DNA of 64,000 bases from Oscillospiraceae bacterium (GTDB lineage: Bacteria; Bacillota; Clostridia; Oscillospirales; Acutalibacteraceae), in contig JAISYX010000022.1 in NCBI GenBank assembly GCA_031269595.1, positions 1 through 64,000 on the forward strand, written 5' to 3'. The translations under genes were made by a program, and so were the position numbers. Below the pieces are notes generated by a model. The model was not told where the DNA came from. It saw nothing but the letters and a program-made list of their open reading frames with translations, and searched no databases. How positions within the stretch are numbered: position 1 is the first letter of the stretch; every line of letters begins with the position of its first letter. Shown in pieces: positions 9,512 to 58,252 of the stretch.

Positions 9512-12325
9512 ATGAAAAAAATTCTTGCAATGCTTGTTGCGATTTCGCTGCTGTTAACAATGGCTGTTGTGCCGGGAGGGCTTAGTGCTTTTGCGGGGGA
9601 TGATGATATTGTTTATTTTCCTGATGATGTTTTGAAATTCCAATTGAAATTTGTCGGTGTTGACACAAACGGCGATGGAGAGATAACTCAAGGAGAATTA
9701 GCAAAGGTTACAGATCTGTCTATATGGGGACAAGCACATCTTATGTCATTAGAGGGCTTGCAATATGCAGTCAATCTTAAAAAACTGTGGATTGATGATG
9801 GGACTTTTAAAGACCTTTCGCCGCTTTCGGGGCTAACCCAATTAACAAGCTTAGGATTGAGCTGGAATTGGATTGAAGATATATCACCGCTTTCAGGGTT
9901 GACCAACCTTACAAACTTGGAATTGGGTGATAACCAAATAACAGACATATCTCCCCTTGCCAACCTGACAGGATTAACTACACTTACATTGTTTAGCAAC
10001 AAAATTGAAGATATTTCGGCTCTCTCAAACCTGCAAACCTTAGAAAGCCTAGAAATTTACAATAACCGTATAAGCGATCTAACACCCTTAAGCAATCTTA
10101 CATCGCTAAAAACCTTAGATATAAACAACAACTATCTTGCGGCTTCTGAAAGAGATTTGACCGATTTAGGCTCTGAGAACACTGCTGTTATCAAAGCTCT
10201 TAAAAAAAATGGCTGTGATATTAATATAGGCACACAAAAAACCTTTAATTTAAGCCCAAAGGTTAACTTCCCTGACCCGTTTTTAAGGCTTTACTTTGTA
10301 TATAATGGCCCAAGTCAATTGGATATGGAAGCCATAACATCCCTTGACTTTTATGATGCATTGGAAAGTAGAGTACGTGATGAAGCCTGGCGCAATACCA
10401 ATCACTATACCTTTACACCTGAGGAGATTGCACTGTTTGAAGAGTTTGCCTCTATAAACAGGAACATTTATTACGGCAGGGCATATGCCGAGCTTTTGAA
10501 GGAGAAGGGCTTGGGAATACAAAGCTTAGAGGGCTTGCAATACGCAATAAATCTCAAGGAGCTAAAATTGTATGGCAGCGGGGTAGAGGATTTATCCCCT
10601 CTTGCCGGCTTGAAAGGGTTGGAAAGACTGGACTTAAGGAATTCTTTTGTAAGTGACCTTTCTCCGCTTAAAGGACTTTCTAAGTTAACTGTTCTGGACC
10701 TTGACGAGAATTTAATAAGTAACATTTCGGCACTCTCCAGTTTGGTAAATTTACAGGGATTGTATTTGAATAACAATAACATTAGCGATATTTCAGCACT
10801 TTCTAATCTTAAGCAATTATCAATATTGATGTTATTCTCAAATCAGATTTCGGACATCTCTCCGCTGAAGGAACTGGTAAAGTTACGCTTGCTTGAGCTG
10901 TCCAACAATAACATAGAGGATATATCAGCACTTTCAAAGCTTACTCAGTTAGTAAATTTGGGCTTAGGCAACAACCAAATCGGTGACATTACTGCCCTGC
11001 AAGGCCTAAATAAGTTGGAAGTCTTAGGCCTTTCTAACAACAGGATAGTTGATATTTCTGCCATTTCAAAGCTGACAAAGCTCGTAATATTATACTTGGA
11101 AAATAACAATATTACAGATATATCACCTCTGCTTAAGTTATCTAACTTGTTCTATGCAGACACTGAGAACAACTCTGAAAATAAGATAACGGATATTTCC
11201 ACTATTTCAGGGGTTTCAAGCCTCTCAGAACTATATGCGATAAATCCGGAGATGTCCGCATTACCGCATATATCTGACCTATTCTATGTGAATATGAAAG
11301 GGAATTATCTTGATACTTCTAATGCAGATATAGCTAATTTGATTAAGCAAATAGACACTCATGTGTATGAAAATGGCACAGGATATATAGACTATGATTT
11401 ACAAAAAGACCTCCCATTCACCCGCCAATCAGGCTCAACCCGCATAGAAACAGCAATAAACATAGCGCAAACCGGCTGGAGCGAAGGCGCAGAAACAGTA
11501 ATCCTAACCAGCGGCAAAGGCTTTGCAGACGCCCTTGCAGGTGGCTCACTCTCCGCGGCACTGGACGTACCCCTGCTGCTCACCGCAAACCCCGAAACAG
11601 GCCTTGAAGACGATGTTTTGCAGGCAATCAAGGACTTAAAAGCAAATAATGTGGTAATTTTAGGCGGCACAGGCACTGTAAGCACAGACATAGAAGAGGA
11701 GTTGGAAGCTCAAGGCTTAGATGTAGAACGCCGCAGCGGCGGTAATCGCTATGAAACCGCAGTTGACATCGCAACCGCTCTATACGAAAATGCTGAGTTT
11801 GACACAGTCTTCCTAGCAGACGGCAACAACTATCCGGACGCCCTTGCAGGTGCGCCTGTTTCAGGCATTTTGGGTCAACCCATCCTCTTCACCAACTCAA
11901 AGGACAAGAACGTTAGAGAAGAAACTCTCACATTCATAGAGGAGAATGGCATCAAGAATGTGGTAATCCTAGGCGGCAGCAGCAGTGTAAGTGATGAGGT
12001 AAAAAAGGCTCTTGAGGACAAAAACATAGAGGTAAGCCGCATTTCCGGCGGCAATAGATACGAGACAGCACTTAACATCTACAACGAGTACAAAGATATT
12101 TTCACAGGGGATGCAATCACCTTAACAACAGGCACCAACTTCCCCGATGCACTTGCAGGTTCAGCCTACTCTGCAAAGATAGGCGCACCATTGTTCTTGC
12201 TCTCAGACACTTTGAATAGTGCAAATATCCGCACTGCTATCACAGATAGCGGCAGGTCAGAAATCCTTGTTTATGGCGGCAGCGGCTCTTTATCTGATGC
12301 TGCTGTGCTCAAGCATATTCTTTAA
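9512..12325 (+). CDS. Surface protein: leucine-rich repeats plus three CWB2 repeats
   Basis: 937 residues. I place the start at the ATG 9512, preceded by AAAAGGAT, rather than at the in-frame GTG 9491, which lacks an SD. A signal peptide (MKKILAMLVAIS ... LSAFA) leads to an EF-hand-like loop DTNGDGEITQGE (about residues 50-62). Two blocks of internalin-type 22-residue LRRs (NxIxDISxLxxL) follow at about 75-215 and 335-600. The C-terminal 300 residues hold three cell-wall-binding-2 repeats (RIETA, FADALAG, VVILGG motifs). CWB2 triplets bind anionic cell-wall polymers in Clostridia. Likely a surface binding protein; ligand unknown. Confidence 0.88.
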   Translation: MKKILAMLVAISLLLTMAVVPGGLSAFAGDDDIVYFPDDVLKFQLKFVGVDTNGDGEITQGELAKVTDLSIWGQAHLMSLEGLQYAVNLKKLWIDDGTFKDLSPLSGLTQLTSLGLSWNWIEDISPLSGLTNLTNLELGDNQITDISPLANLTGLTTLTLFSNKIEDISALSNLQTLESLEIYNNRISDLTPLSNLTSLKTLDINNNYLAASERDLTDLGSENTAVIKALKKNGCDINIGTQKTFNLSPKVNFPDPFLRLYFVYNGPSQLDMEAITSLDFYDALESRVRDEAWRNTNHYTFTPEEIALFEEFASINRNIYYGRAYAELLKEKGLGIQSLEGLQYAINLKELKLYGSGVEDLSPLAGLKGLERLDLRNSFVSDLSPLKGLSKLTVLDLDENLISNISALSSLVNLQGLYLNNNNISDISALSNLKQLSILMLFSNQISDISPLKELVKLRLLELSNNNIEDISALSKLTQLVNLGLGNNQIGDITALQGLNKLEVLGLSNNRIVDISAISKLTKLVILYLENNNITDISPLLKLSNLFYADTENNSENKITDISTISGVSSLSELYAINPEMSALPHISDLFYVNMKGNYLDTSNADIANLIKQIDTHVYENGTGYIDYDLQKDLPFTRQSGSTRIETAINIAQTGWSEGAETVILTSGKGFADALAGGSLSAALDVPLLLTANPETGLEDDVLQAIKDLKANNVVILGGTGTVSTDIEEELEAQGLDVERRSGGNRYETAVDIATALYENAEFDTVFLADGNNYPDALAGAPVSGILGQPILFTNSKDKNVREETLTFIEENGIKNVVILGGSSSVSDEVKKALEDKNIEVSRISGGNRYETALNIYNEYKDIFTGDAITLTTGTNFPDALAGSAYSAKIGAPLFLLSDTLNSANIRTAITDSGRSEILVYGGSGSLSDAAVLKHIL

Positions 12326-12495: not shown

Positions 12496-14697
12496 ATGAA
12501 AAAAATTCTTGCAATGTTTGTTGCGATTTCACTGCTGTTAACAATGGCGGTTGTGCCGGGAGGGCTTAGTGCTTTTGCGGGGGATGATGATATTGTTTAT
12601 TTTCCTGATGAGAATTTGAGAAGCTTAGTGCTTCAAACTGCAAAATTTTACAAGCTTGACAAAAATGGTGATAATGAACTTAGTGTGCGTGAACTCTCTT
12701 TTTTAAAGGATTTAGGATTTGTAAAAAACGATATGAACTCACATCCTGATATTGTAGGTGTATCAAATCTTGAGGGCTTGCAATATGCAAAAAATTTAGA
12801 AAGTTTGGCCTTAATAGAGAATAATATTGACGATCTTTCGCCTATTGCAGGGTTAACAAACTTAAAGAGCTTGACCTTGAATGACGGAGCAATTGAGGAT
12901 ATTTCTCCAATTGCTAACTTAACAAAATTAAAAGATCTGGATTTGAGTAACAACAACATAAGTGATATTGCAACGCTTTCAGGTTTAGTAAATCTTAAAA
13001 GGTTGTCTCTTAGCGACAATTCTATTGCGGATTTAACATCTCTGTCTGATTTAACCTTGATTTATGACTTGAAATTGGATAATAATCCTATTTCCAACTT
13101 AACCCCTTTATCTCGATTAGAAAGTATTACATATCTATCATTAAACAATATTAATACTGCGGATATTTCTCCTCTTTCTGAAATGAATAATATCAGAGAA
13201 CTGTCCTTAGACAACAATGGCATAGAGGATATTTCGGTTTGTTCAAGGTATGATTTGCTTACATTGTTGTCGCTGAATGGCAACAAAATTAGCGATATTG
13301 AGACGCTTGCAGACAATAAAGAGCTAACCTATCTTTATATGGATAACAATAGGATAAAAGATATTGCATGGCTTTCGGGATTGACTGGATTGCGTATACT
13401 AAGTTTAAATAATAATGAAATCCGTAATATAGACTCACTAAATAATCTTGAAAAATTACATGAACTTTATCTTTCACATAACAAAATAAGTGATGCATCT
13501 GCATTGCCAATAAACTTATCGTTTAACAACAGACATGATACTTCTGGATTTTTGCATACAATAATTGATTTGTCTGATAATTACTTAACTGATTTTTATT
13601 ACGAGTTTGACAATTGGACAATGGGCTGGTATGATATGAACATATCAAATAACTATATTGATATAAGTGATGGAACATACACAAAAGACTGGCTAGATTA
13701 TTACACTAATGGAGGAGAACATAGGCTTTCTTCAATTAGCATTAATTATGATAATCAAAAACCAATTTCAGAATTGGCTGAACTATCCTTCACCCGCCAA
13801 TCAGGCTCAACCCGCATAGAAACAGCCATAAACATAGCGCAAACCGGCTGGAGCGAAGGCGCAGAAACAGTAAGCCTAACCAGCGGACGTGGCTTTGCAG
13901 ATGCACTCGCAGGCGGCTCACTCTCCGCAGCACTGGACGCACCCCTGCTGCTCACCTCAAACCTATCAACTGGCTTGGAAGATGATGTTTTGAATGCAAT
14001 CAAGGACTTAAAAGCAAAGAATGTGGTAATCCTAGGCGGCACAGGCACTGTAAGCACAGAAATAGAAGCTGCCCTAAAAGCGCAGGGCTTAAATGTAGAA
14101 CGCCGCAGCGGCGGCAACCGCTATGAAACCGCAGTTGACATCGCAACCGCTCTGTATGAAAATGCCGAGTTCGACACAGTCTTCCTCGCAGACGGCAACA
14201 ACTACCCTGACGCCCTTGCAGGTGCGCCTGTGTCTGGCATTCTGGGTCAGCCGATACTCTTCACCAACTCAAAGGATAAGAACGTTAGAGATGAAACCCT
14301 CACATTCATAGAGGAGAATGGCATCAAAAATGTGGTAATCCTAGGCGGCAGTAGCAGTGTAAGTGATGAGGTAAAAAAGGCTCTTGAGGACAAAAACATA
14401 GAGGTAAGCCGCATTTCTGGCGGCAACAGATACGAGACAGCACTTAACATCTACAACGAGTACAAAGATATTTTCACAGGGGATGCAATCACCATAACAA
14501 CAGGCACAAACTTCCCCGACGCACTGGCGGGTTCAGCCTACTCTGCAAAGATAGGCGCACCATTGTTCTTGCTCTCAGACACTTTGAATAGTGCAAATAT
14601 CCGCACTGCTATCACAGATAGCGGCAGGTCAGAATTCCTTGTTTATGGCGGCAGCGGCTCTTTATCTGATGCTGCTGTGCTCAAGCATATTCTTTAA
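12496..14697 (+). CDS. Surface protein: leucine-rich repeats plus three CWB2 repeats (paralogue)
   Basis: 733 residues, start chosen as for its upstream paralogue (ATG after AAAAGGAT). The signal peptide and the CWB2 module (about residues 430-733) are nearly identical to those of the neighbour, also at the DNA level. The EF-hand-like loop (DKNGDNELSVRE) and the LRR block (about 90-360) are clearly diverged. A short non-LRR segment (about 360-425) rich in Asn and Tyr joins the two. The arrangement suggests a tandem duplication in which the anchor stayed homogeneous while the recognition part diversified. Function inferred as surface adhesion or binding. Confidence 0.88.
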   Translation: MKKILAMFVAISLLLTMAVVPGGLSAFAGDDDIVYFPDENLRSLVLQTAKFYKLDKNGDNELSVRELSFLKDLGFVKNDMNSHPDIVGVSNLEGLQYAKNLESLALIENNIDDLSPIAGLTNLKSLTLNDGAIEDISPIANLTKLKDLDLSNNNISDIATLSGLVNLKRLSLSDNSIADLTSLSDLTLIYDLKLDNNPISNLTPLSRLESITYLSLNNINTADISPLSEMNNIRELSLDNNGIEDISVCSRYDLLTLLSLNGNKISDIETLADNKELTYLYMDNNRIKDIAWLSGLTGLRILSLNNNEIRNIDSLNNLEKLHELYLSHNKISDASALPINLSFNNRHDTSGFLHTIIDLSDNYLTDFYYEFDNWTMGWYDMNISNNYIDISDGTYTKDWLDYYTNGGEHRLSSISINYDNQKPISELAELSFTRQSGSTRIETAINIAQTGWSEGAETVSLTSGRGFADALAGGSLSAALDAPLLLTSNLSTGLEDDVLNAIKDLKAKNVVILGGTGTVSTEIEAALKAQGLNVERRSGGNRYETAVDIATALYENAEFDTVFLADGNNYPDALAGAPVSGILGQPILFTNSKDKNVRDETLTFIEENGIKNVVILGGSSSVSDEVKKALEDKNIEVSRISGGNRYETALNIYNEYKDIFTGDAITITTGTNFPDALAGSAYSAKIGAPLFLLSDTLNSANIRTAITDSGRSEFLVYGGSGSLSDAAVLKHIL

Positions 14698-26427: not shown

Positions 26428-26696
26428 GATGAACCCTCCAATATTTTTTGACTTCCGCTACTGTGGCGGGGAATTTGATAAGGCATTTCACTTGCCCCAA
26501 AGGGCAAATTTAGTTGCGAGCTCGCAAAAGCGGGCCGCATGACAGGGTACTCCGAAAAAGATACGAAGTGAAGAGTGAAAAACGAAAAGAGCAAAGTGAA
26601 AAGTACAAACCAGCGAACCCGTTCTTATTTTTCACTTTTCACTCTTCACTTTTCACTTTGACGATTTATCGCCGGTTTGGTGCGCCACAAGTAGTA
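26428..26696. repeat. AGTGAAAAGTGAAGAG repeat region at the left flank of the mobile element
   Basis: 26567-26600 carries GAAGTGAAGAGTGAAAAA-type repeats, and 26630-26660 carries the inverse (TTCACTTTTCACTCTTCAC), forming a long imperfect inverted repeat. The same motif occurs at 22889, 40671-40708 and 41012-41045. No gene. Confidence 0.6.
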
Positions 26697-28147
26697 AAAT
26701 CCGAACCTTTCGCTAAACCCATTATATCAGATAGCGCAATGGTTTTGCAACCCTCTTTGTAATTAAATGTGAGAACGAGCCGGTCGTCAAAGAGATAGAT
26801 GGCGTTCACAAAGCTGTCAATCAATCTTTGCCGCTGTTCCGGCTTTGTAGTATCAATCAGCCGGAATTTGTGAATCCAAAAGGTGACTTGCTCCCTTTTC
26901 AAAAGCGGACGTTGCATTTCTTCTTGCAAAATCTTGACTTCCAAATCGCTCTTGACTTGCTCTAACTCGTCAAGCCGCTGTTTGGTAAAGCTGTTGAAAA
27001 TGCCTTGCTGAATTGCGTTTACAAGGTTCTCTGCGGCTTTTTCCGTGTCCGCAAGCTGTTCCTTGTAGCGGGGTAAATCTATATTTTCTCTTTTCTGCAA
27101 GTCCATTACCAAGTCTGTGATATACTCCACAACCGAATCGTCCATAATCGCTTTCATCGTTTCGGCTACAACAATGTCCTCAATCCACGCCTTTTTGACT
27201 GCCTTTTTATTGCACCCCTTGTGTTTTTTCGCACCCACGCATTTGTAATATTGATGAAATTTGCCTGTTCCGCTCGTTCCGCTTTCGCCCACCATAAACG
27301 CGCCGCACAATCCACAATGCAGTTTTGTTGACAATAAGTAAAGTTCTTCCTTTGCCTTATATCGGGCAGGGGCTTTTTTGTTTTTGGCAAGCCGTTCCTG
27401 CACACGGTCAAACAAATCCTGTGGCACAATAGCGGGAATACCGCCTGGAATAATGGTCTTACTGTAACGGTATTCGCCCAAATAGGCGCGGTTTTTCAGC
27501 ATTCGCTTTACGCTGTCAATGCCCATCACCTTGCCCCTGTGCGGCTGTATACCCTTTTCATTCAGCCAGCGGACAATCTCGGCAACGGTTGCACCCTTGT
27601 CATATTTCTTGAAGGTATCCAACACCGCCGGAGCGGTCAGCGTATCAAGCTGATAGCATTGTTCGCTATCTGTCGAGTAGCCCACAGGCAGACCGCCGCC
27701 GTTGTATTTGCATTTCAGTGCGTTTTCGGTCAAGCCCCTTGTCACCTTTTCGGACAACTCCGCACTGTAAAATTCGGCGTAGCCCTCTAACAGAGATTCA
27801 AGCAAAATTCCTGTGGAATCCTCGGCTATGGTTTCCTTTGCCGATACCACCTTAACACCGTTTCGGCGCAGAATTGCCTTGTAATGTGCGCTGTCATAGC
27901 GATTTCTCGCAAAGCGGTCAAGTTTCCAAACAATTACAACATCAAAGAGGTGCTTGGCACTGTCTTTTACCATGTGCTGAAATTCGGGGCGGTTATCTGT
28001 TTTGGCGGACAAGGCACGGTCAATGTAACTGTTCAAAATGGTAATGCCTTGCTTTTCGGCGTATTCCTTACACTCCCGGATTTGCCCTTCAATGGATTCT
28101 TCCCGCTGATTGTCAGAGGAATATCGGGCGTATATGACACCTTTCAT
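26666..28147 (-). CDS. Large serine recombinase (integrase of the element)
   Basis: 493 residues. N-terminal resolvase domain with the catalytic Ser in ARYSSDNQREESIEGQ, plus VIVWKLDRFARN. The recombinase domain is about 160-260, then a zinc ribbon (CGLC near 278, later C-C pair), then a coiled coil (about 360-430). It overlaps the XRE gene by 4 nt. The last 10-11 residues (about TTCGAPNRR) are read from DNA outside the inferred attL, so the natural C terminus differs in the circular form. It catalyses integration and excision through double-strand breaks at short att sites. Confidence 0.92.
   Translation of the reverse strand: MKGVIYARYSSDNQREESIEGQIRECKEYAEKQGITILNSYIDRALSAKTDNRPEFQHMVKDSAKHLFDVVIVWKLDRFARNRYDSAHYKAILRRNGVKVVSAKETIAEDSTGILLESLLEGYAEFYSAELSEKVTRGLTENALKCKYNGGGLPVGYSTDSEQCYQLDTLTAPAVLDTFKKYDKGATVAEIVRWLNEKGIQPHRGKVMGIDSVKRMLKNRAYLGEYRYSKTIIPGGIPAIVPQDLFDRVQERLAKNKKAPARYKAKEELYLLSTKLHCGLCGAFMVGESGTSGTGKFHQYYKCVGAKKHKGCNKKAVKKAWIEDIVVAETMKAIMDDSVVEYITDLVMDLQKRENIDLPRYKEQLADTEKAAENLVNAIQQGIFNSFTKQRLDELEQVKSDLEVKILQEEMQRPLLKREQVTFWIHKFRLIDTTKPEQRQRLIDSFVNAIYLFDDRLVLTFNYKEGCKTIALSDIMGLAKGSDFTTCGAPNRR
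26697..26706. other. Candidate attL
   Basis: AAATCCGAAC, which on the minus strand encodes the Gly-Ser-Asp of the recombinase C terminus. Sequence to its left would be host DNA. Confidence 0.5.
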
Positions 28148-28503
28148 TTTCTCTGTTCCTCCTGCATTAACCGCAAAACAACTTGTTTGAGTTTATCACT
28201 CATTGGAGAATTGGGGTCAAAGCACATCTCTACAAACTGTTTCATGTCCTCGTTGAACACCTTCGGCTGATAGTCATACAGCTTGCCCTGCGGTTGTTCG
28301 CACCGCCCGAAAATATAGTCCAAAGACACATCAAAATAATCCGCATACCACAGCAAAACAGAATAGGGGGCTTCGGCGTTGCTGTGTTCATAGCGGTTGA
28401 CAGTTGCCTGTTTTAACTCTGCCAGTTCTCCTAATTTTGCTTGTGATAACTTCACGCTTTCTCGCAGCGTTCGTAATCTTTCTCCGACTGTAGGCATTTG
28501 CAA
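28144..28503 (-). CDS. XRE-family regulator of the element
   Basis: 119 residues. HTH_3 domain at about 5-62 (RLRTLRESVKLSQAKLGELAELKQATVNRYEHSNAEAP), then a short helical C-terminal part ending RLMQEEQRK. It is co-transcribed ahead of the recombinase (ATGA-type overlap). GGAG precedes the ATG. It probably represses the element's promoters, including its own (inference from position and inverted repeats). Confidence 0.85.
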   Translation of the reverse strand: MQMPTVGERLRTLRESVKLSQAKLGELAELKQATVNRYEHSNAEAPYSVLLWYADYFDVSLDYIFGRCEQPQGKLYDYQPKVFNEDMKQFVEMCFDPNSPMSDKLKQVVLRLMQEEQRK

Positions 28504-28551
28504 TCACTCCTTTACTGATTATATTATAACCGATATTAGAGTGATTGTCAA
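28501..28551 (-). promoter_or_regulatory. Promoter with flanking inverted repeat for xre-recombinase
   Basis: Minus strand TTGACA (28551-28546), 17-nt spacer, TATAAT (28528-28523). CAATCACTC (28547-28539) and GAGTGATTG (28509-28501) form a 9-bp inverted repeat spanning the promoter and the ribosome-binding site. It could be an operator for the XRE protein or an mRNA hairpin masking the SD. Confidence 0.75.
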
Positions 28552-28577
28552 TACAAAAGCAAAAATGTTTTTTCTAC

Positions 28578-29213
28578 TCATCCATTTGGATATTTCCAGT
28601 TGAACGGCATAAAAGTGCGTCTTCGTGCGTCTTTTATGGCTTCGTCAATTGATGTGAAATCACAATCGTTTTCAGTTTCCATATTGTCATTACACAGAAA
28701 TAAATATATAGTGTCCTCATTTTCATATTTACAAATAGCCATATAACATATTGGTATTTGTTCCGATGTTGCATCAACTGTGACAAAACCGTAATTGCCT
28801 CTGTTGCTTACCATCAAAATAATAGCATTGTCAATTTTGTGGTATATTCGGTCTGTTAAGGTTAATAAAGGATTGCATATCCTTAAAACAATGGCATAGC
28901 CAACCACCTTTGAACCCTCTTGAACAGATAATCGCTTGCCAATCCACAAAGATTTGGGGTAAAATTCGGGAGATATGAAAGTAATTGTTCCGTAGGCTGT
29001 TCCATTAGGCTCAATTTTCCCAACATTATAATAATGATGAATCCCCGTTGTCAAATAATTGTCTTTTATTAAATGGGCAGGGCGATACCCATTTGTAGCG
29101 GCTGTCTTTCTCGCTCCAATGAAGTAGAAAAAGACTTCAACATCGGAATTTTCCCACATAGCAAATAGACCTTCTTTCAAACGATGTACATCCAATACCC
29201 TAATTTCAACCAA
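28578..29213 (-). CDS. EF-Tu-like beta-barrel protein of a mobile element
   Basis: 211 residues. Residues about 25-115 (FYFIGARKTAATNGYRPAHLI, TTGIHHYYNVGKI, ITFISPEFYPKSLWIGK, QEGSKVVGYAIVLRI) resemble the beta-barrel domain of EF-Tu. No GTPase domain is present. The C-terminal 90 residues are acidic and do not match anything I know. Small proteins of this kind occur in clostridial genomes, often misannotated as EF-Tu. Function unknown. An immunity role is a guess. Confidence 0.55.
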   Translation of the reverse strand: MVEIRVLDVHRLKEGLFAMWENSDVEVFFYFIGARKTAATNGYRPAHLIKDNYLTTGIHHYYNVGKIEPNGTAYGTITFISPEFYPKSLWIGKRLSVQEGSKVVGYAIVLRICNPLLTLTDRIYHKIDNAIILMVSNRGNYGFVTVDATSEQIPICYMAICKYENEDTIYLFLCNDNMETENDCDFTSIDEAIKDARRRTFMPFNWKYPNG

Positions 29214-29231
29214 TCAATCTTTCTAACAATA

Positions 29232-29648
29232 TCATTTATATTGGTCAGTTTTAAAGGAACGCCGCTGTCTCTTGTTTTTTTTATGCGCTACATGCATATC
29301 ATCCTCTGTGAAAAATTGTGTAAGAGGGCAACCGCTCTTTATCGGCAATGCGCAGAATATACCTTTAAGCCGCATGAGTTTAGCAATAATACCTTCTTTG
29401 GAATGGTTATTTTCCCTCAAAAACTGCTCGGCTTTTTCTGTGCTCCGAAAGCGTCTATTTCCATAGATTTCAGCATAGCCGTTGTAAATAAGTTTGCTCA
29501 TACCGTAATTCAGTTCGTCCTGTAAGAAAATGGTATGATTCAACAAATCGCCTGTTCTCAAAATATCATTCAACATACATCCTTCTGCATCTGAGGATAA
29601 GGACATTAACAGCCAAATATCGTAAAATTGCCATTTACTTAAATCCAT
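29232..29648 (-). CDS. Unknown protein of the mobile element
   Basis: 138 residues, no membrane segment, 18 nt ahead of the EF-Tu-like gene, so the two probably form one operon. N-terminal half resembles a winged-helix style arrangement (LSSDAEGCMLNDILRTGDLL ... LIYNGYAEIYGNRRFRSTEKAEQFL), with a basic C terminus (KKNKRQRRSFKTD). A DNA-binding role is possible. No family assigned. Confidence 0.5.
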   Translation of the reverse strand: MDLSKWQFYDIWLLMSLSSDAEGCMLNDILRTGDLLNHTIFLQDELNYGMSKLIYNGYAEIYGNRRFRSTEKAEQFLRENNHSKEGIIAKLMRLKGIFCALPIKSGCPLTQFFTEDDMHVAHKKNKRQRRSFKTDQYK

Positions 29649-29711
29649 TACTCACACCTCTTCACAATAAAATACACACCAGATAAAATTCATCCTTCAC
29701 ATCCGCATTTT

Positions 29712-29801
29712 TTACACCCAATAGCCGCTTTTCAACCAATCCTCATAATCCTCAATCTTCATTTCGCTACTCGTTACCTTATCCCGATACTCCCGCGCCG
29801 C
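29712..29801 (-). pseudogene. Remnant of a second DUF6076-like gene (C-terminal end only)
   Basis: Minus-strand translation gives AAREYRDKVTSSEMKIEDYE then DWLKSGYWV and a stop. This aligns with the C terminus of the intact gene upstream (NYRDKVTNGEMPLEQFQAWLDSGRWV). No start or upstream part is present, so it is a leftover of a duplication or exchange. Confidence 0.65.
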
Positions 29802-29838
29802 CGGATATGGCACAGTGCCTTTTTCGACGGATTTTTAG

Positions 29839-30120
29839 TTAAAGCCGATTGTTAAAAAAATCAGAGATTTCCTCAATATCAAGATTGCAGAAGTATGCAA
29901 ACCCTTGATATTCAATCATGATTCTATTTTCATATTCTCCGCAAATCGCACAATGGTGTCTAAAATCCGGCTGTGAAATAACTCCCTCGTTGCGTTCAAG
30001 CATTTGCTTTAATTTTTGACTATGGCTGCGACATAGGTAAGAAGCATCGGTTGTAATCCCACAAAGCATACATTTTATCTTTTTTTCATCATCTACACCC
30101 ATCTTCCCGAATCGAGCCAC
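29839..30120 (-). CDS. Small zinc-finger-like protein
   Basis: 93 residues from a GTG at 30120 (an ATG at 30102 is also possible but has its SD too close). Cysteine pairs CMLC (about 17-20), C-H (about 31-34) and HCAIC (about 57-61) suggest one or two zinc sites. It overlaps the end of the DUF6076-like gene by 28 nt, so translation is probably coupled. Function unknown. Confidence 0.5.
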   Translation of the reverse strand: MARFGKMGVDDEKKIKCMLCGITTDASYLCRSHSQKLKQMLERNEGVISQPDFRHHCAICGEYENRIMIEYQGFAYFCNLDIEEISDFFNNRL

Positions 30121-31073
30121 GCTTGAAACTGCTCCAACGGCATTTCGCCGTTCGTCACCTTATCCCGATAATTCCTCGCTTTTGCCGCCCATTCTTGAAA
30201 CACTTCTCTTGTGATTTTCCCCGCCCGAATCCTTGAAAACCTCGTCTTGTAATGCTTATTATACAGCAAAATCGCGGGGCTGGCGGCAACCTTCTCTTTC
30301 CATTTCGCCATAGAGCCGATTTCCCGGCAGGTCTTGCCGTCAGCGTAAATGCGGTTGCAAAACTCTGTGTTGCCGTGAGCGGTAGAAGGGAAATACTTGC
30401 CGCAGTTTTTGCAGGGCTTAAACGTGACCTCACGCCGCACCACCTCACGCAGAAAGAAATCCACCATATCCGCAATAGAGCGCGGATAAAGCACCTCTGC
30501 CATTGACGAGCCGTCCACACGCTCAAAGCCGGTAGACAAGGGGCGAAAATTGAACAAATCAAGCGAACCATCATAGCCCCTGTATAAATCCGCAACCGCC
30601 TTTTGCACCGTCTTGTCCCGCGCTGTGCCGTCCAAAGCCTTTTTCAGCAAATCCCGAATATGATTCTGCCATGTGGCAAGCTGTGACGGAATCCATGTGA
30701 TATCCTTATATCGCATCAAGCGGTCAACCGCACCCTCAAATTCTTTCCGTTCGTATCGATCAAGCCTGTCCTGCCAATCAATTCGCAGAAATTCAAAAAA
30801 GATGTGTTTCCGCGCCAAGCTGTCAAAAGCGCGGCGCAGATTGAAGGTATCGCCGCTCCCATCCGTCTTAGAATACAACGCCTGTATTTGTTTCCCCATG
30901 TTCCCGGTGGGCTCGTATAAATCATCCACATTCAAATCAAGCAACGCCAAAAGGCTTTGGGTAAACTCAAAGTCTTTTTTGTGCACCAATTTTTTATCAT
31001 ACTCATTTTCGACCGTTCCCCACCCAAACACCTCACGAACGCCGTCCGTCCACACCTTAAATTTATACGCCAT
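30093..31073 (-). CDS. DUF6076-like zinc-binding protein
   Basis: 326 residues starting at MAYKFKVW with GAGGGTG upstream; an earlier in-frame start would add 20 residues through the leader. A zinc knuckle CKNCGKYF ... FCNRIYADGKTC lies at about 225-255. Helical elsewhere. Proteins like this are frequent on clostridial integrative elements, function unknown. It is first in a minus-strand operon whose promoter shares a dyad with the mob promoter. Confidence 0.6.
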   Translation of the reverse strand: MAYKFKVWTDGVREVFGWGTVENEYDKKLVHKKDFEFTQSLLALLDLNVDDLYEPTGNMGKQIQALYSKTDGSGDTFNLRRAFDSLARKHIFFEFLRIDWQDRLDRYERKEFEGAVDRLMRYKDITWIPSQLATWQNHIRDLLKKALDGTARDKTVQKAVADLYRGYDGSLDLFNFRPLSTGFERVDGSSMAEVLYPRSIADMVDFFLREVVRREVTFKPCKNCGKYFPSTAHGNTEFCNRIYADGKTCREIGSMAKWKEKVAASPAILLYNKHYKTRFSRIRAGKITREVFQEWAAKARNYRDKVTNGEMPLEQFQAWLDSGRWV

Positions 31074-31112
31074 TTCGCACCCTCTTTCAGATAAAAGAAT
31101 ATCTTCAAATTT

Positions 31113-31155
31113 ATTATACAATAGTCTTGACAAGTTGTCAAGAGAGTGCTATAAT
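31113..31155. promoter_or_regulatory. Face-to-face promoters sharing the dyad TTGACAAGTTGTCAA
   Basis: Plus strand: TTGACA 31127-31132, 17 nt, TATAAT 31150-31155 (toward mobC/relaxase). Minus strand: TTGACA 31141-31136, 17 nt, TATAAT 31118-31113 (toward the DUF6076-like gene). The two -35 boxes are the two arms of the perfect 15-bp dyad 31127-31141, so a repressor there would close both. Both promoters match the consensus fully. Confidence 0.85.
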
Positions 31156-31405
31156 AAAAATTGCAGAAAACAGAAAAATATATTTCTTGTTTTCTCATTA
31201 CAATGGAAAGTGAGGGCAGGAGTAAAATTGAATGACCGTCCGAACGGCTACTTGTCCGGCAAAGCGCGCCACGACCCGCGAACAGCGGTAGCGCACCAAA
31301 GGCAAGAAAACGGCAGGCTACCAAGAAAGGCAAGTTGTCAGGAAACTGGCTCGGAAAAACGGCGAATAATCGCTGGGAGGTGAAAACGCACAGCAACAGC
31401 GCACG

Positions 31406-31635
31406 GCCGCCGAACGGCGGCTAAATGGCGGGACACGTCGCCATGTGAAAGCTATCGCTTTCACCGCAAAGCCGGACTATCGTCCGCTTCGCTCACCGCC
31501 GCTGTTGCGGCTGGCGGCTCGGCAATCTTCGATTGCCCCGCATTTACTATCCCCTTGGGATAGGCAAGCTTCCTATTTGTATAGACGGCTACCGCCGCCA
31601 TACAAACAGTCGCTTGGTTGGGGGATTCCCCCAAC
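31406..31635 (+). other. Array of hairpins ahead of mobC (candidate oriT or structured leader)
   Basis: Five perfect or near-perfect inverted repeats: GCCGCC-GAAC-GGCGGC (31406-31421), GTGAAAGC-TATC-GCTTTCAC (31445-31464), CGGAC-TATC-GTCCG (31473-31486), GGCAATC-TTC-GATTGCC (31521-31537), TTTGTAT...ATACAAA with an inner CGGC-TACC-GCCG (31576-31606). A sixth, GTTGGGGGA/TCCCCCAAC, is at 31617-31635. Inverted repeats of this kind flank nic sites upstream of MOB genes. No nic site could be assigned. Confidence 0.5.
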
Positions 31636-31666
31636 ACCCCCTTTTACGGGAAAAATTGCAAGGAAG

Positions 31667-31984
31667 GTGATAACTACGAGCAAAAACAAACTTCTCAATT
31701 TCCGCCTGTCGGAATCCGACATGGCGAAAATCAAGACAAAATCCGCAAGGGTGGATTTAACCGTTTCAGCGTTCATTCTGTCCGCCGCGCTGAACAAGCC
31801 GATTGTCGTTATTGATGGCTTGCCGGATGCGGTGAAGGAAATGCGCCGGATCGGGGCGAATGTCAATCAGCTTACAACGCTGGCGAATATGGAAAAAATC
31901 AAGTGCATTGAGCTGTGCGATGTGAAAGAAGAATTGGTGAAAGTATGGCAATCATTAAATTCACTAACTCAAATCACGGGCTGA
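31667..31984 (+). CDS. mobC: MobC-like mobilization accessory protein
   Basis: About 105 residues from a GTG at 31667. The family pattern is clear: LLNFRLSESDMAKIKTKSA (ribbon-helix-helix-like), then AALNKPIVVIDGL, LPDAVKEMRRIGANVNQLT and the C-terminal helix. MobC proteins bind oriT and help the relaxase. The GTG has almost no gap from its AAGGAAG. The codon ACG at 31676 sits at ideal distance from GGAAGGTG, where homologues would be expected to have ATG. The longer frame from 31445 runs through the hairpins and is unlikely. Confidence 0.8.
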   Translation: MITTSKNKLLNFRLSESDMAKIKTKSARVDLTVSAFILSAALNKPIVVIDGLPDAVKEMRRIGANVNQLTTLANMEKIKCIELCDVKEELVKVWQSLNSLTQITG

Positions 31985-33255
31985 AAGCAATCCTCCGCTA
32001 TGTCGCCCAATATGCAAAAACCGAAGCGCGGCTTGTGAGCGGCAAGGATTGTATGCCGGAATCGGCGTTAGCGGAAATGCAGACCGTCAAGCGAATGTAT
32101 GGCAAAGACACCGGGCGGCAGTATATCCACCTCATTCAATCCTTTTCGCCGGAGGAAAAGCTAACCCACGCACAAGCGCATGAAATCGGCGTGAAGCTGG
32201 CAGACCGTTTCCCGGGATTTCAGGCGGTAATCGCCACCCACAAAGACCGGGGGCATATCCATAACCACATTGTGCTGAACTCGGTCAACATGGATACCGG
32301 GCTGAAATGGCAGCAGTCCAAAAAAGAGTTACAGGCAGTCAAAGATTATTCTGACAGCTTGTGTATGGAGCGAGGGCTGACGGTGATAAGCGAAAAATCA
32401 CAGGCGCGTGATATGGGTATAAACGAGTTGAAAGCCGCCGAAAAGGGCGAAAGCTGGAAATTCAAACTTATGAACGCAATCGACAGCGCAATGGAAAACA
32501 GCGCAAACAAGGGCGATTTTATCGCCAATATGGAGCGGATGGGCTACGGTGTCAAGTGGATAGACCATTACAAATATATCACTTACACGACACCGGAGGG
32601 GCAGAAATGCCGCGACAATCGGCTTCACGATGAAAAATATTTGAAGGAAAGGATGGAACAGCATTATGGCATTGGATTTGAAAAATCTCAAAGAGATGAA
32701 TCGACCCGAAGTATTGGTGAAGGAACTGGAAATCAAAGTGCCGGTCATGGGCTTGCCGCCGGAGCTTCTGCGGGAATTGCTAAAAATGCTGTCGGAAATC
32801 GCGCAGCATCAAGAACCGATGCAGAAGAAAATCGAGCAGCTGCCGACTTGGACGGACTGGAAACAGGAGATCATGCCGGAGGTCAAAAGGGCAATGAGCA
32901 GCCACACGGCGGCGGTGGAGAGATACGAAAGAAGTCTGCGCTCAGACTTTTCCAGTCAAGCGGACAACTTGAAACGGAGCATTTCAGCGACAGTCAGCAA
33001 CAAGCTGGAAGGGCTGGAGAAACGCTTGCAGGCGCGGGACAATACGCCGACAAAGCGGATGTGGAAATGGCTCGGAATCGGGGCGTTGATACCGCCGCTG
33101 TTATCGGGGCTGTGGTGGCTATTGAAAACTTTTTGGCTCTGACAGACCCGCCGAAAAAGGAGGAACAAGAGCAAAAGCAAGTCACCGAGCGCAAAAATCG
33201 GCAGAAGAAAAAGCATAAACAATCCCACGACCACGAGTGGGAAATGAGCTGGTAG
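31945..33255 (+). CDS. Relaxase (MOBP-type mobilization nuclease)
   Basis: 436 residues starting at MAIIKFTNSNHG; the longer frame from 31915 has no SD. The N-terminal domain has candidate nicking tyrosines in ILRYVAQYAKTEARL and the metal-binding triad in GHIHNHIVLNSV (about residue 105). It would nick oriT and pilot the strand. It overlaps mobC by 40 nt. The C-terminal third is low-complexity (Gly, Ala, Glu, Gln rich) because that DNA also encodes another protein in a different frame. It ends in a basic segment KNRQKKKHKQSHDHE. Confidence 0.9.
   Translation: MAIIKFTNSNHGLKAILRYVAQYAKTEARLVSGKDCMPESALAEMQTVKRMYGKDTGRQYIHLIQSFSPEEKLTHAQAHEIGVKLADRFPGFQAVIATHKDRGHIHNHIVLNSVNMDTGLKWQQSKKELQAVKDYSDSLCMERGLTVISEKSQARDMGINELKAAEKGESWKFKLMNAIDSAMENSANKGDFIANMERMGYGVKWIDHYKYITYTTPEGQKCRDNRLHDEKYLKERMEQHYGIGFEKSQRDESTRSIGEGTGNQSAGHGLAAGASAGIAKNAVGNRAASRTDAEENRAAADLDGLETGDHAGGQKGNEQPHGGGGEIRKKSALRLFQSSGQLETEHFSDSQQQAGRAGETLAGAGQYADKADVEMARNRGVDTAAVIGAVVAIENFLALTDPPKKEEQEQKQVTERKNRQKKKHKQSHDHEWEMSW
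32666..33142 (+). CDS. Mobilization-type coiled-coil/TM protein nested in the relaxase gene
   Basis: 158 residues in another frame fully inside the relaxase gene. AAGGATGG lies 8-10 nt before its ATG. Composition is normal protein-like: Leu- and Glu-rich helices (LPPELLRELLKMLSEIAQH), a long coiled coil (about 80-130) and a C-terminal TM (WLGIGALIPPLLSGLWWLL). In this stretch the relaxase frame is low-complexity, suggesting the nested frame is the more constrained one. The layout parallels ColE1-type mbeD inside mbeA. Confidence 0.65.
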   Translation: MALDLKNLKEMNRPEVLVKELEIKVPVMGLPPELLRELLKMLSEIAQHQEPMQKKIEQLPTWTDWKQEIMPEVKRAMSSHTAAVERYERSLRSDFSSQADNLKRSISATVSNKLEGLEKRLQARDNTPTKRMWKWLGIGALIPPLLSGLWWLLKTFWL

Positions 33256-56394: not shown

Positions 56395-56444
56395 TTTATA
56401 ATTTATAATGCAGAATTAGGAGAAGCAAGAAGGATGTGAAAATT

Positions 56445-58214
56445 ATGGAAGCTGCAACAATTGCAGTTAGCGCAGAGATACTTAAACATATTGGTGAACT
56501 TGTGCAAAAGAATGCCCCTGCGATTTTGGCTGCAATACAAAAATCTAGCAAGGATAGAAAAGCTAAAAAACAAATTGATTGCGGCGAGGCCTTTAGAGTT
56601 TATTTAATTGATGCCTTTAAAAAGTATAGCAATGTAAGAACCTTTTTAGCACCTAACCCACAAAACATTGCCGATATTTATGTGGCAGGAGATATACAAA
56701 GGGAAAAGAAGAAAATAAGCACTTGAGAACTGCAAAGCCTACTTGAGATTTCACAATTTTCGTTGATTTCCGGCACTGCGGGCATGGGCAAATCTACTAT
56801 GCTTAAGCATTATTTTGTTGATGCAATATGTAAGCGAGAGCGCATTCCCATTCTGGTTGAGCTGAACAGGCTGCCTCAGTATAAGAATAACCTGTTCGAT
56901 TGCATGTATGATTCTTTGAAAAGGTTTAACTTTACCTTGGATGAAGAGCATTTTAAATATGCCCTGAACTCAGGCTGTTTTATTTTGATGTTTGATGCTT
57001 TTGATGAAGCCCCTGATGGAAAGAGTGTTTTTGAGCAATTGGAGAGGCTTTGTGATGAATACAGCAAAAATTATTTTATAGTAACTACAAGGCCTATGGG
57101 CTCTTACAACCGCTGGCATAGGTTTGATATGTTTGAAGCTCTTCCATTTACTAAAACACAGGCCTACAATGTTATTAAAAGGATAAAATACGACGACAAA
57201 GAGCTGCAAGATAAATTTTTAAAGGAAATGAATAAGACTTTATATAATAAGCACAAGTCGTTTGCATCCATTCCTTTAATGCTTAATATTATGATGCTGA
57301 CATATAAGGATTACAGCGAAATACCCACAAAGATTCATATTTTTTATAAAAATGCATATGCGGCACTTTACCGTTTGCACGATTCAAATAAAGGCGGAGG
57401 CTTTGTGAGAAGCTTGAAATGCGGGTTAAGCTCTGATGAATTTAAAAAGGCAATAATGGAGTTTTGTTTTTGCTCATTTGCCAAAGGCATGTACGCCTTT
57501 AATTTGGGTGAATTGGAAGGAACAATAGCAAAGGTAAGCCTTTTAAAGGATGTAGATCCATACGATTTCATAGAGGATTTACGTACGGCTGTTTGTTTGA
57601 TACAGCAGGATGGGCAAAATTATTATGAATTTACACACCGCTCTTTTCAGGAGTATTTTACTGCTTTATATTTAAAGGAAAATGATACGCCCGAACGAAA
57701 ATGGGCCATTAGGCTAATAGAAAAAACTAATATTAGTCAAATCCGTGTTATAGAAACTTTATGTGATATGGACTTTAAAAAATTTGAAAGAAATGTAGCC
57801 ATTCCAATGATTTGTAGTATATTGGATAATCAAAAAAACAATTGTACAAATAATGATACTTTTAGGATTTATGACTTGGATTTTTTCATTGATAATTACT
57901 CCAATCTTACTCCTGGATATGGAACAGAGACGTTTTGCTTGGACGTTTTGCGTAATTCCTATAATTTCGATTCCATGCCACCATTGATTACTGCGAAGTT
58001 TAAAGAAACCCTTTTTAATATTTGTAAACCCATTGTTAATGGATTTTATCGTTGTAGGTACAAGGATTTTACCGCCACAGAAGAAATGCGTGAGCTTTCC
58101 TTTGGAGAAAACGGCTTTTTTACCAACTACAAAAATTACCTTATAAATTTGCGTGAAGAGCTACTTGCAAAAAGTGCCGCTGCAGATCAAGAATTTGACG
58201 CCCTTTTTACCTAA
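56445..58214 (+). pseudogene. NACHT-type NTPase interrupted by one in-frame TGA
   Basis: Two frames, 56445-56726 and 56763-58214, are the same frame separated only by TGA 56724-56726, with REKKKIST before it and ELQSLLEISQFSLISGTAGM after it. The first part is a helical N-terminal domain (about 94 residues). The second has a P-loop GTAGMGKSTM, a Walker B-like ILMFDAFDEAPDG, a VTTRPMGSYNRW sensor and a C-terminal helical part with THRSFQEYFTALYL. This matches bacterial NACHT proteins linked to phage defence. Start at ATG 56445 behind AAGGATG. Either inactivated by the stop or read through. Confidence 0.75.
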
Positions 58215-58252
58215 CCCATTTATATACAATAAATAACAAAGGAGAACATCCT

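What the first reader, a model, noticed from the sequence alone, without database searches (positions are those of the whole stretch)
56445..58214. Phage-defence type NACHT gene with a single in-frame TGA
Both sides of the stop are intact and in frame, and the stop lies in the linker just before the P-loop. A single substitution from, for example, CGA or TGG could explain it. Alternatives are read-through, or separate expression of the N-terminal domain and an NTPase starting later; the downstream part lacks an SD and an ATG before the P-loop.
Basis: partly seen in the sequence, partly recalled or inferred. Interest (0 to 1): 0.6.

Follow-up and report, generated by a model that had tools for sequence, protein, structure and literature searches.

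The report
Broken bacterial NACHT immunity gene
A gut bacterium carries, squeezed between two housekeeping genes, a foreign-looking immune-sensor gene of a widespread phage-defence type that a single stop codon cuts off before its working part: most likely an ordinary, recent loss of a costly defence gene.

Summary
Window 56445-58214 (+) reads as a 589-residue NACHT protein interrupted once, by TGA at codon 94 (56724-56726). Both sides belong to one gene: 139 of 139 distinct relatives that cover the site, including whole genes of about 600 aa, run through it on a sense codon. The residue there varies freely, so nothing favours a special amino acid. No tRNA-Sec reached its cut-off in the genome, release factor 2 is present, no RNA structure follows the stop, and the next in-frame starts lie inside the first strand of the NTPase or inside the P-loop. 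The gene is AT-rich and sits where several relatives have argS joined directly to the homocysteine S-methyltransferase gene, so it is an acquired single-gene insert. Relatives occur in prophage-like contigs and beside restriction genes, and resemble bNACHT proteins with short C-terminal (SNaCT) domains. Best reading: a recent nonsense mutation (or, less likely, a sequencing error) in an acquired bNACHT gene. Low-level read-through is possible, because TGA followed by G is leaky, but nothing shows that it is used. Ordinary; low interest.

The parts
56445..56726 (+). 5' part of the NACHT gene: 93 codons (helical N-terminal region and beta-hairpin at the entrance of the NACHT domain), ending in the in-frame TGA
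   Evidence: aligned to the N-termini of relatives; phrog_18297 positions 14-99; model: helices 10-34 and 46-61, strands 83-86 and 89-92
56724..56726 (+). the single in-frame TGA, codon 94, followed by G
   Evidence: sense codon in 139 of 139 distinct relatives covering the site
56727..58214 (+). 3' part: NACHT NTPase (Walker A GTAGMGKS, FDAFDE), helical and winged-helix region with FTHRSFQEYF, C-terminal tail; TAA stop
   Evidence: Pfam NACHT 27.2 bits; phrog_18297 E 1.1e-79; model resembles the NACHT region of NLRC4
56395..58252 (+). insert between argS and the homocysteine S-methyltransferase gene, about 1.86 kb, GC 32-39% against 50-57% in the flanks
   Evidence: the two neighbours are adjacent in relatives L174, L177, L178, L191, L192, L193

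Best explanation
An acquired single-gene bacterial NLR-like (bNACHT) sensor, inserted between argS and the homocysteine S-methyltransferase gene, has been cut short by one recent nonsense substitution at codon 94. Translation mainly yields a 93-residue N-terminal fragment without the P-loop, so the sensor cannot bind nucleotide or oligomerise and the gene is inactive, or nearly so, in this genome. In intact relatives the expected action is that of other bNACHT proteins: a trigger during infection switches the NACHT module from closed to oligomeric and sets off an antiviral response. Shown: the single stop, the shared frame, the sense codon in relatives, the insertion. Inferred: that the substitution is real and recent, that the product is inactive, and the defence role.
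For: One stop in 589 codons with homology on both sides. All 139 distinct relatives covering the site have a sense codon there; the residues vary (A, V, S, P, E, I and others). TGA is an ordinary stop here: 13 of 53 predicted genes of the window end in it, prfB is present at 517 bits, and no tRNA-Sec reaches its cut-off, the sub-threshold hits being normal Ser, Leu, Pro and Arg tRNAs. No structure follows the stop (z 0.47). The model puts the stop between the entry hairpin and strand 1 of the NTPase, so neither piece is a complete NACHT unit. Other relatives are broken too: L006 lacks its 5' part, and L013 has a single in-frame TAG at the position of residue 421. The empty site exists in relatives.
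Against: The frame is otherwise clean: no second stop or frameshift, so selection may still act, or the base may be miscalled. TGA followed by G is a leaky context in E. coli (PMC11126739), and basal TGA read-through of about 6% was reported in B. subtilis (PMC7918605), so some full-length protein may be made. No second genome of the genus or species was available.
Confidence: 0.73

Rival explanations
1. Sequencing or assembly error: the gene is intact in the organism and the TGA is a miscalled base or a minority variant in a draft assembly.
For: Draft genome of 148 contigs; the frame has no other lesion; no other genome of the genus was available.
Against: Single-base substitution errors are rare in assembled short-read consensus sequence (general knowledge). 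Broken copies occur elsewhere in the family. No read data were at hand.
Confidence: 0.13
2. Functional read-through: the leaky TGA (followed by G) is tolerated or kept because a small amount of full-length sensor is enough, or because high amounts of an NLR-like protein are costly.
For: The frame downstream is open for 495 codons. In a simulation, unconstrained drift large enough to change 14 of 79 conserved positions would give about 6 stops, and one or none in only 3% of runs, so the gene's divergence arose under constraint. TGA followed by G lowers termination efficiency in E. coli. Genes with in-frame stops often keep dN/dS below 1.
Against: No relative shares the stop. The same data fit a recent loss equally well. 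No stimulatory RNA structure follows the stop.
Confidence: 0.1
3. Two separate products: the N-terminal region alone, and an NTPase started downstream of the TGA.
For: A downstream ORF of 483 codons from TTG 56763 exists mechanically.
Against: TTG 56763 has no SD and falls inside the first NACHT strand (residues 105-109); ATG 56784 lies inside Walker A. No relative has a split gene at this place.
Confidence: 0.03
4. Recoding of TGA as selenocysteine, or use of a variant genetic code.
For: Only that the stop is a TGA; a few relatives have Cys at the column (2 of 139).
Against: No tRNA-Sec reached its cut-off, prfB is present, TGA ends other genes of the window, no hairpin follows, and Cys is not typical of the column.
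Confidence: 0.01

Closest known systems
bNACHT proteins with SNaCT domains (clade 14 of Kibby et al. 2023, as described in PMC12169576: bNACHT02, bNACHT11, bNACHT12)
   Same: Central NACHT module, short C-terminal region, no recognisable N-terminal effector domain; 17 of 37 relatives carry Pfam SNaCT7 and one carries SNaCT6.
   Different: The window protein matches no SNaCT model, and it is interrupted; its place in the published clades could not be tested.
phrog_18297 (phage protein family of unknown function)
   Same: Matches both sides of the stop in order, E 1.1e-79 downstream.
   Different: Members are in phage genomes; the window copy is chromosomal between housekeeping genes, and interrupted.
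Animal NLRs (NLRC4 is the best match in fold and sequence)
   Same: NACHT NTPase with helical and winged-helix parts; Foldseek E 2.5e-12 to NLRC4; sequence profile E 6.9e-7.
   Different: No CARD and no LRR region; identity about 17%.

Membership tests
NACHT / STAND NTPase | Pfam NACHT match with Walker A and Walker B motifs | tested here: met
   27.2 bits against a cut-off of 26.7; GTAGMGKS and FDAFDE present; all 37 aligned members match NACHT
NACHT / STAND NTPase | continuous reading frame through the NACHT module | tested here: not met
   TGA at codon 94, between the entry hairpin and NACHT strand 1; so it is filed as an interrupted copy, not as a working member
bNACHT clade 14 (SNaCT) | short NACHT-associated C-terminal (SNaCT) domain | tested here: inconclusive
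   no SNaCT match in the window protein; 17 of 37 relatives match SNaCT7; the C-terminal tail is divergent
bNACHT anti-phage system | protection against phage | not testable with these tools
   only indirect: relatives next to restriction-modification genes and a terminase gene, 68 relatives in IMG/VR contigs
catalogued defence system | match to a PADLOC defence model | tested here: not met
   no hit for either half; intact relatives hit only candidate models weakly (PDC-S60, best E 7e-11)
selenoprotein | tRNA-Sec in the genome and a hairpin after the TGA | tested here: not met

The most novel reading that the evidence does not exclude
A leaky TGA is kept as a dose limiter: only read-through ribosomes make the full sensor, so a costly immune protein is held at a low level and could rise when termination weakens, for instance during stress or infection.
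Probability: 0.04. Interest if true: 0.6.

Novelty: new member of a known kind. Interest (0 to 1): 0.14.

Why it matters
As a plain nonsense copy it is one more example of the quick gain and loss of defence genes, and of single bNACHT genes landing between housekeeping genes. If the TGA were used by read-through it would be a new way to limit the dose of a bacterial immune sensor.

Tried and rejected
Selenocysteine or a variant code. Structured read-through signal. Downstream restart. A second copy in the genome that could supply the function: none found. Same-species or same-genus genomes: none held. An exact DNA match for the stop region in IMG/VR: none. The first single-protein scan of genome contigs found nothing; the alignment scan found 80 loci. 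Excess change at conserved positions as a sign of decay: the window protein is the most deviant of 37 (14 of 79), but L010, with an open frame, has 13 of 81, and the end branch is long in both, so it does not prove decay. Boundaries of a mobile element: only short chance-level repeats found.

Full report
Observation. The stretch 56445-58214 on the + strand is one reading frame of 589 codons with a single internal stop, TGA at 56724-56726 (codon 94), ending in TAA. Downstream, Pfam calls a NACHT domain just above its cut-off. The phage family phrog_18297 matches the N-terminal part (profile 14-99) and the downstream part (122-499) in the right order.

One gene, not two. Relatives were gathered from the same family and order, from genome contigs and from viral contigs. 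Of 144 distinct relatives, 139 cover the stop column and all 139 have a sense codon there. Most are single genes of about 600 aa, others 780-980 aa with a longer N-terminal region. The residue at that column varies widely, so the column carries no special requirement. An AlphaFold2 model of the read-through protein (mean pLDDT 79.9) puts the stop directly after a beta-hairpin (83-92) and before the first NACHT strand (105-109). The model resembles the NACHT region of NLRC4, as does the sequence profile.

Not recoded, not split. TGA ends 13 of 53 predicted genes of the window. Release factor 2 is encoded in the genome (517 bits). No tRNA-Sec reaches its cut-off, and the weak hits are ordinary Ser, Leu, Pro and Arg tRNAs. 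The RNA after the stop is not unusually structured (z 0.47). In-frame starts after the stop are a TTG at codon 107, inside strand 1 and without an SD, and an ATG at codon 114, inside Walker A; a product started there would lack part of the NTPase core. No relative is split at this place.

Where it came from. The gene is 32-39% GC in flanks of 50-57%. In six relatives argS is followed directly by the homocysteine S-methyltransferase gene with no NACHT gene between (L174, L177, L178, L191, L192, L193; Pfam S-methyl_trans for the window neighbour). So it is an insert of about 1.86 kb, with no mobile-element ends recognised. It is the only NACHT gene found in the genome.

What the family does. Relatives lie next to cytosine methylases, a MutH-type nuclease gene, an NgoFVII-type nuclease, type I restriction genes and a phage terminase gene, and 68 lie in IMG/VR contigs; others are single genes between housekeeping genes, as here. 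17 of 37 close relatives carry the C-terminal domain SNaCT7 and one SNaCT6. According to PMC12169576, clade 14 bNACHT proteins all have SNaCT domains and lack a readily discernible effector, and two of them, bNACHT02 and bNACHT12, protect against phages. A defence role for this family is therefore likely but inferred. The window protein itself matches no SNaCT model and no PADLOC model.

Age of the stop. The window protein differs from its relatives at 14 of 79 highly conserved positions, the most of 37, and has a long end branch (1.61); L010, which is uninterrupted, is similar (13 of 81; 2.02). If drift without constraint had made these changes, about 6 stops would be expected, and one or none in only 3% of runs (the simulation ignores indels and assumes that conserved codons are random codons of the gene). 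So the divergence came mainly before the stop, and the stop is recent, or an error, or tolerated.

Read-through. In E. coli, TGA is the leakiest stop and a following G lowers termination efficiency (PMC11126739). In B. subtilis basal read-through of a catA86 TGA was 6% (PMC7918605). The context here is TGA-G, so a few per cent of full-length protein is possible; nothing shows that it is used.

Verdict. A recently nonsense-mutated, horizontally acquired bNACHT gene is the simplest account (0.73), with a base-call error (0.13) and functional read-through (0.10) as the main rivals. Two other relatives are also broken (L006 lacking its 5' part; L013 with a single TAG at the position of residue 421), so loss in this family is not unusual. 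Interest is low.

Noticed in passing
L013 (G584:C23): A more distant relative (31% identity) in the same order is also interrupted by a single in-frame stop (TAG), at the position of residue 421, just after the FxHRSFQEYF motif.
   Followed up: partly
L006 (G221:C12): A same-family relative (43% identity) lacks its 5' part including the P-loop, with an unrelated membrane-protein ORF directly upstream: a decayed remnant.
   Followed up: partly
L026, L031: In two Streptococcus species the relative sits at the same chromosomal place, between an aminopeptidase-like gene and a polC-like gene, suggesting a fixed landing site or old vertical descent there.
   Followed up: no
L005, L007 and others of 780-980 aa: A long version of the family has about 250 extra N-terminal residues; the two scanned (L005, L007) have Pfam SNaCT14 at the C-terminus and lie beside type II restriction-modification genes; the function of the extra region is not known.
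   Followed up: partly
window 9512-12325 and 12496-14697: Two neighbouring large secreted-protein ORFs with nearly the same signal region (MKKILAM.VAISLLLTMAVVPGGLSAFAGDDDIVYFPD): a tandem duplication.
   Followed up: no
window 26666-33255: ORFs that look like a serine recombinase (26666-28147, -) and a relaxase (31945-33255, +), suggesting an integrated mobile element in the same window (judged from sequence by eye only).
   Followed up: no
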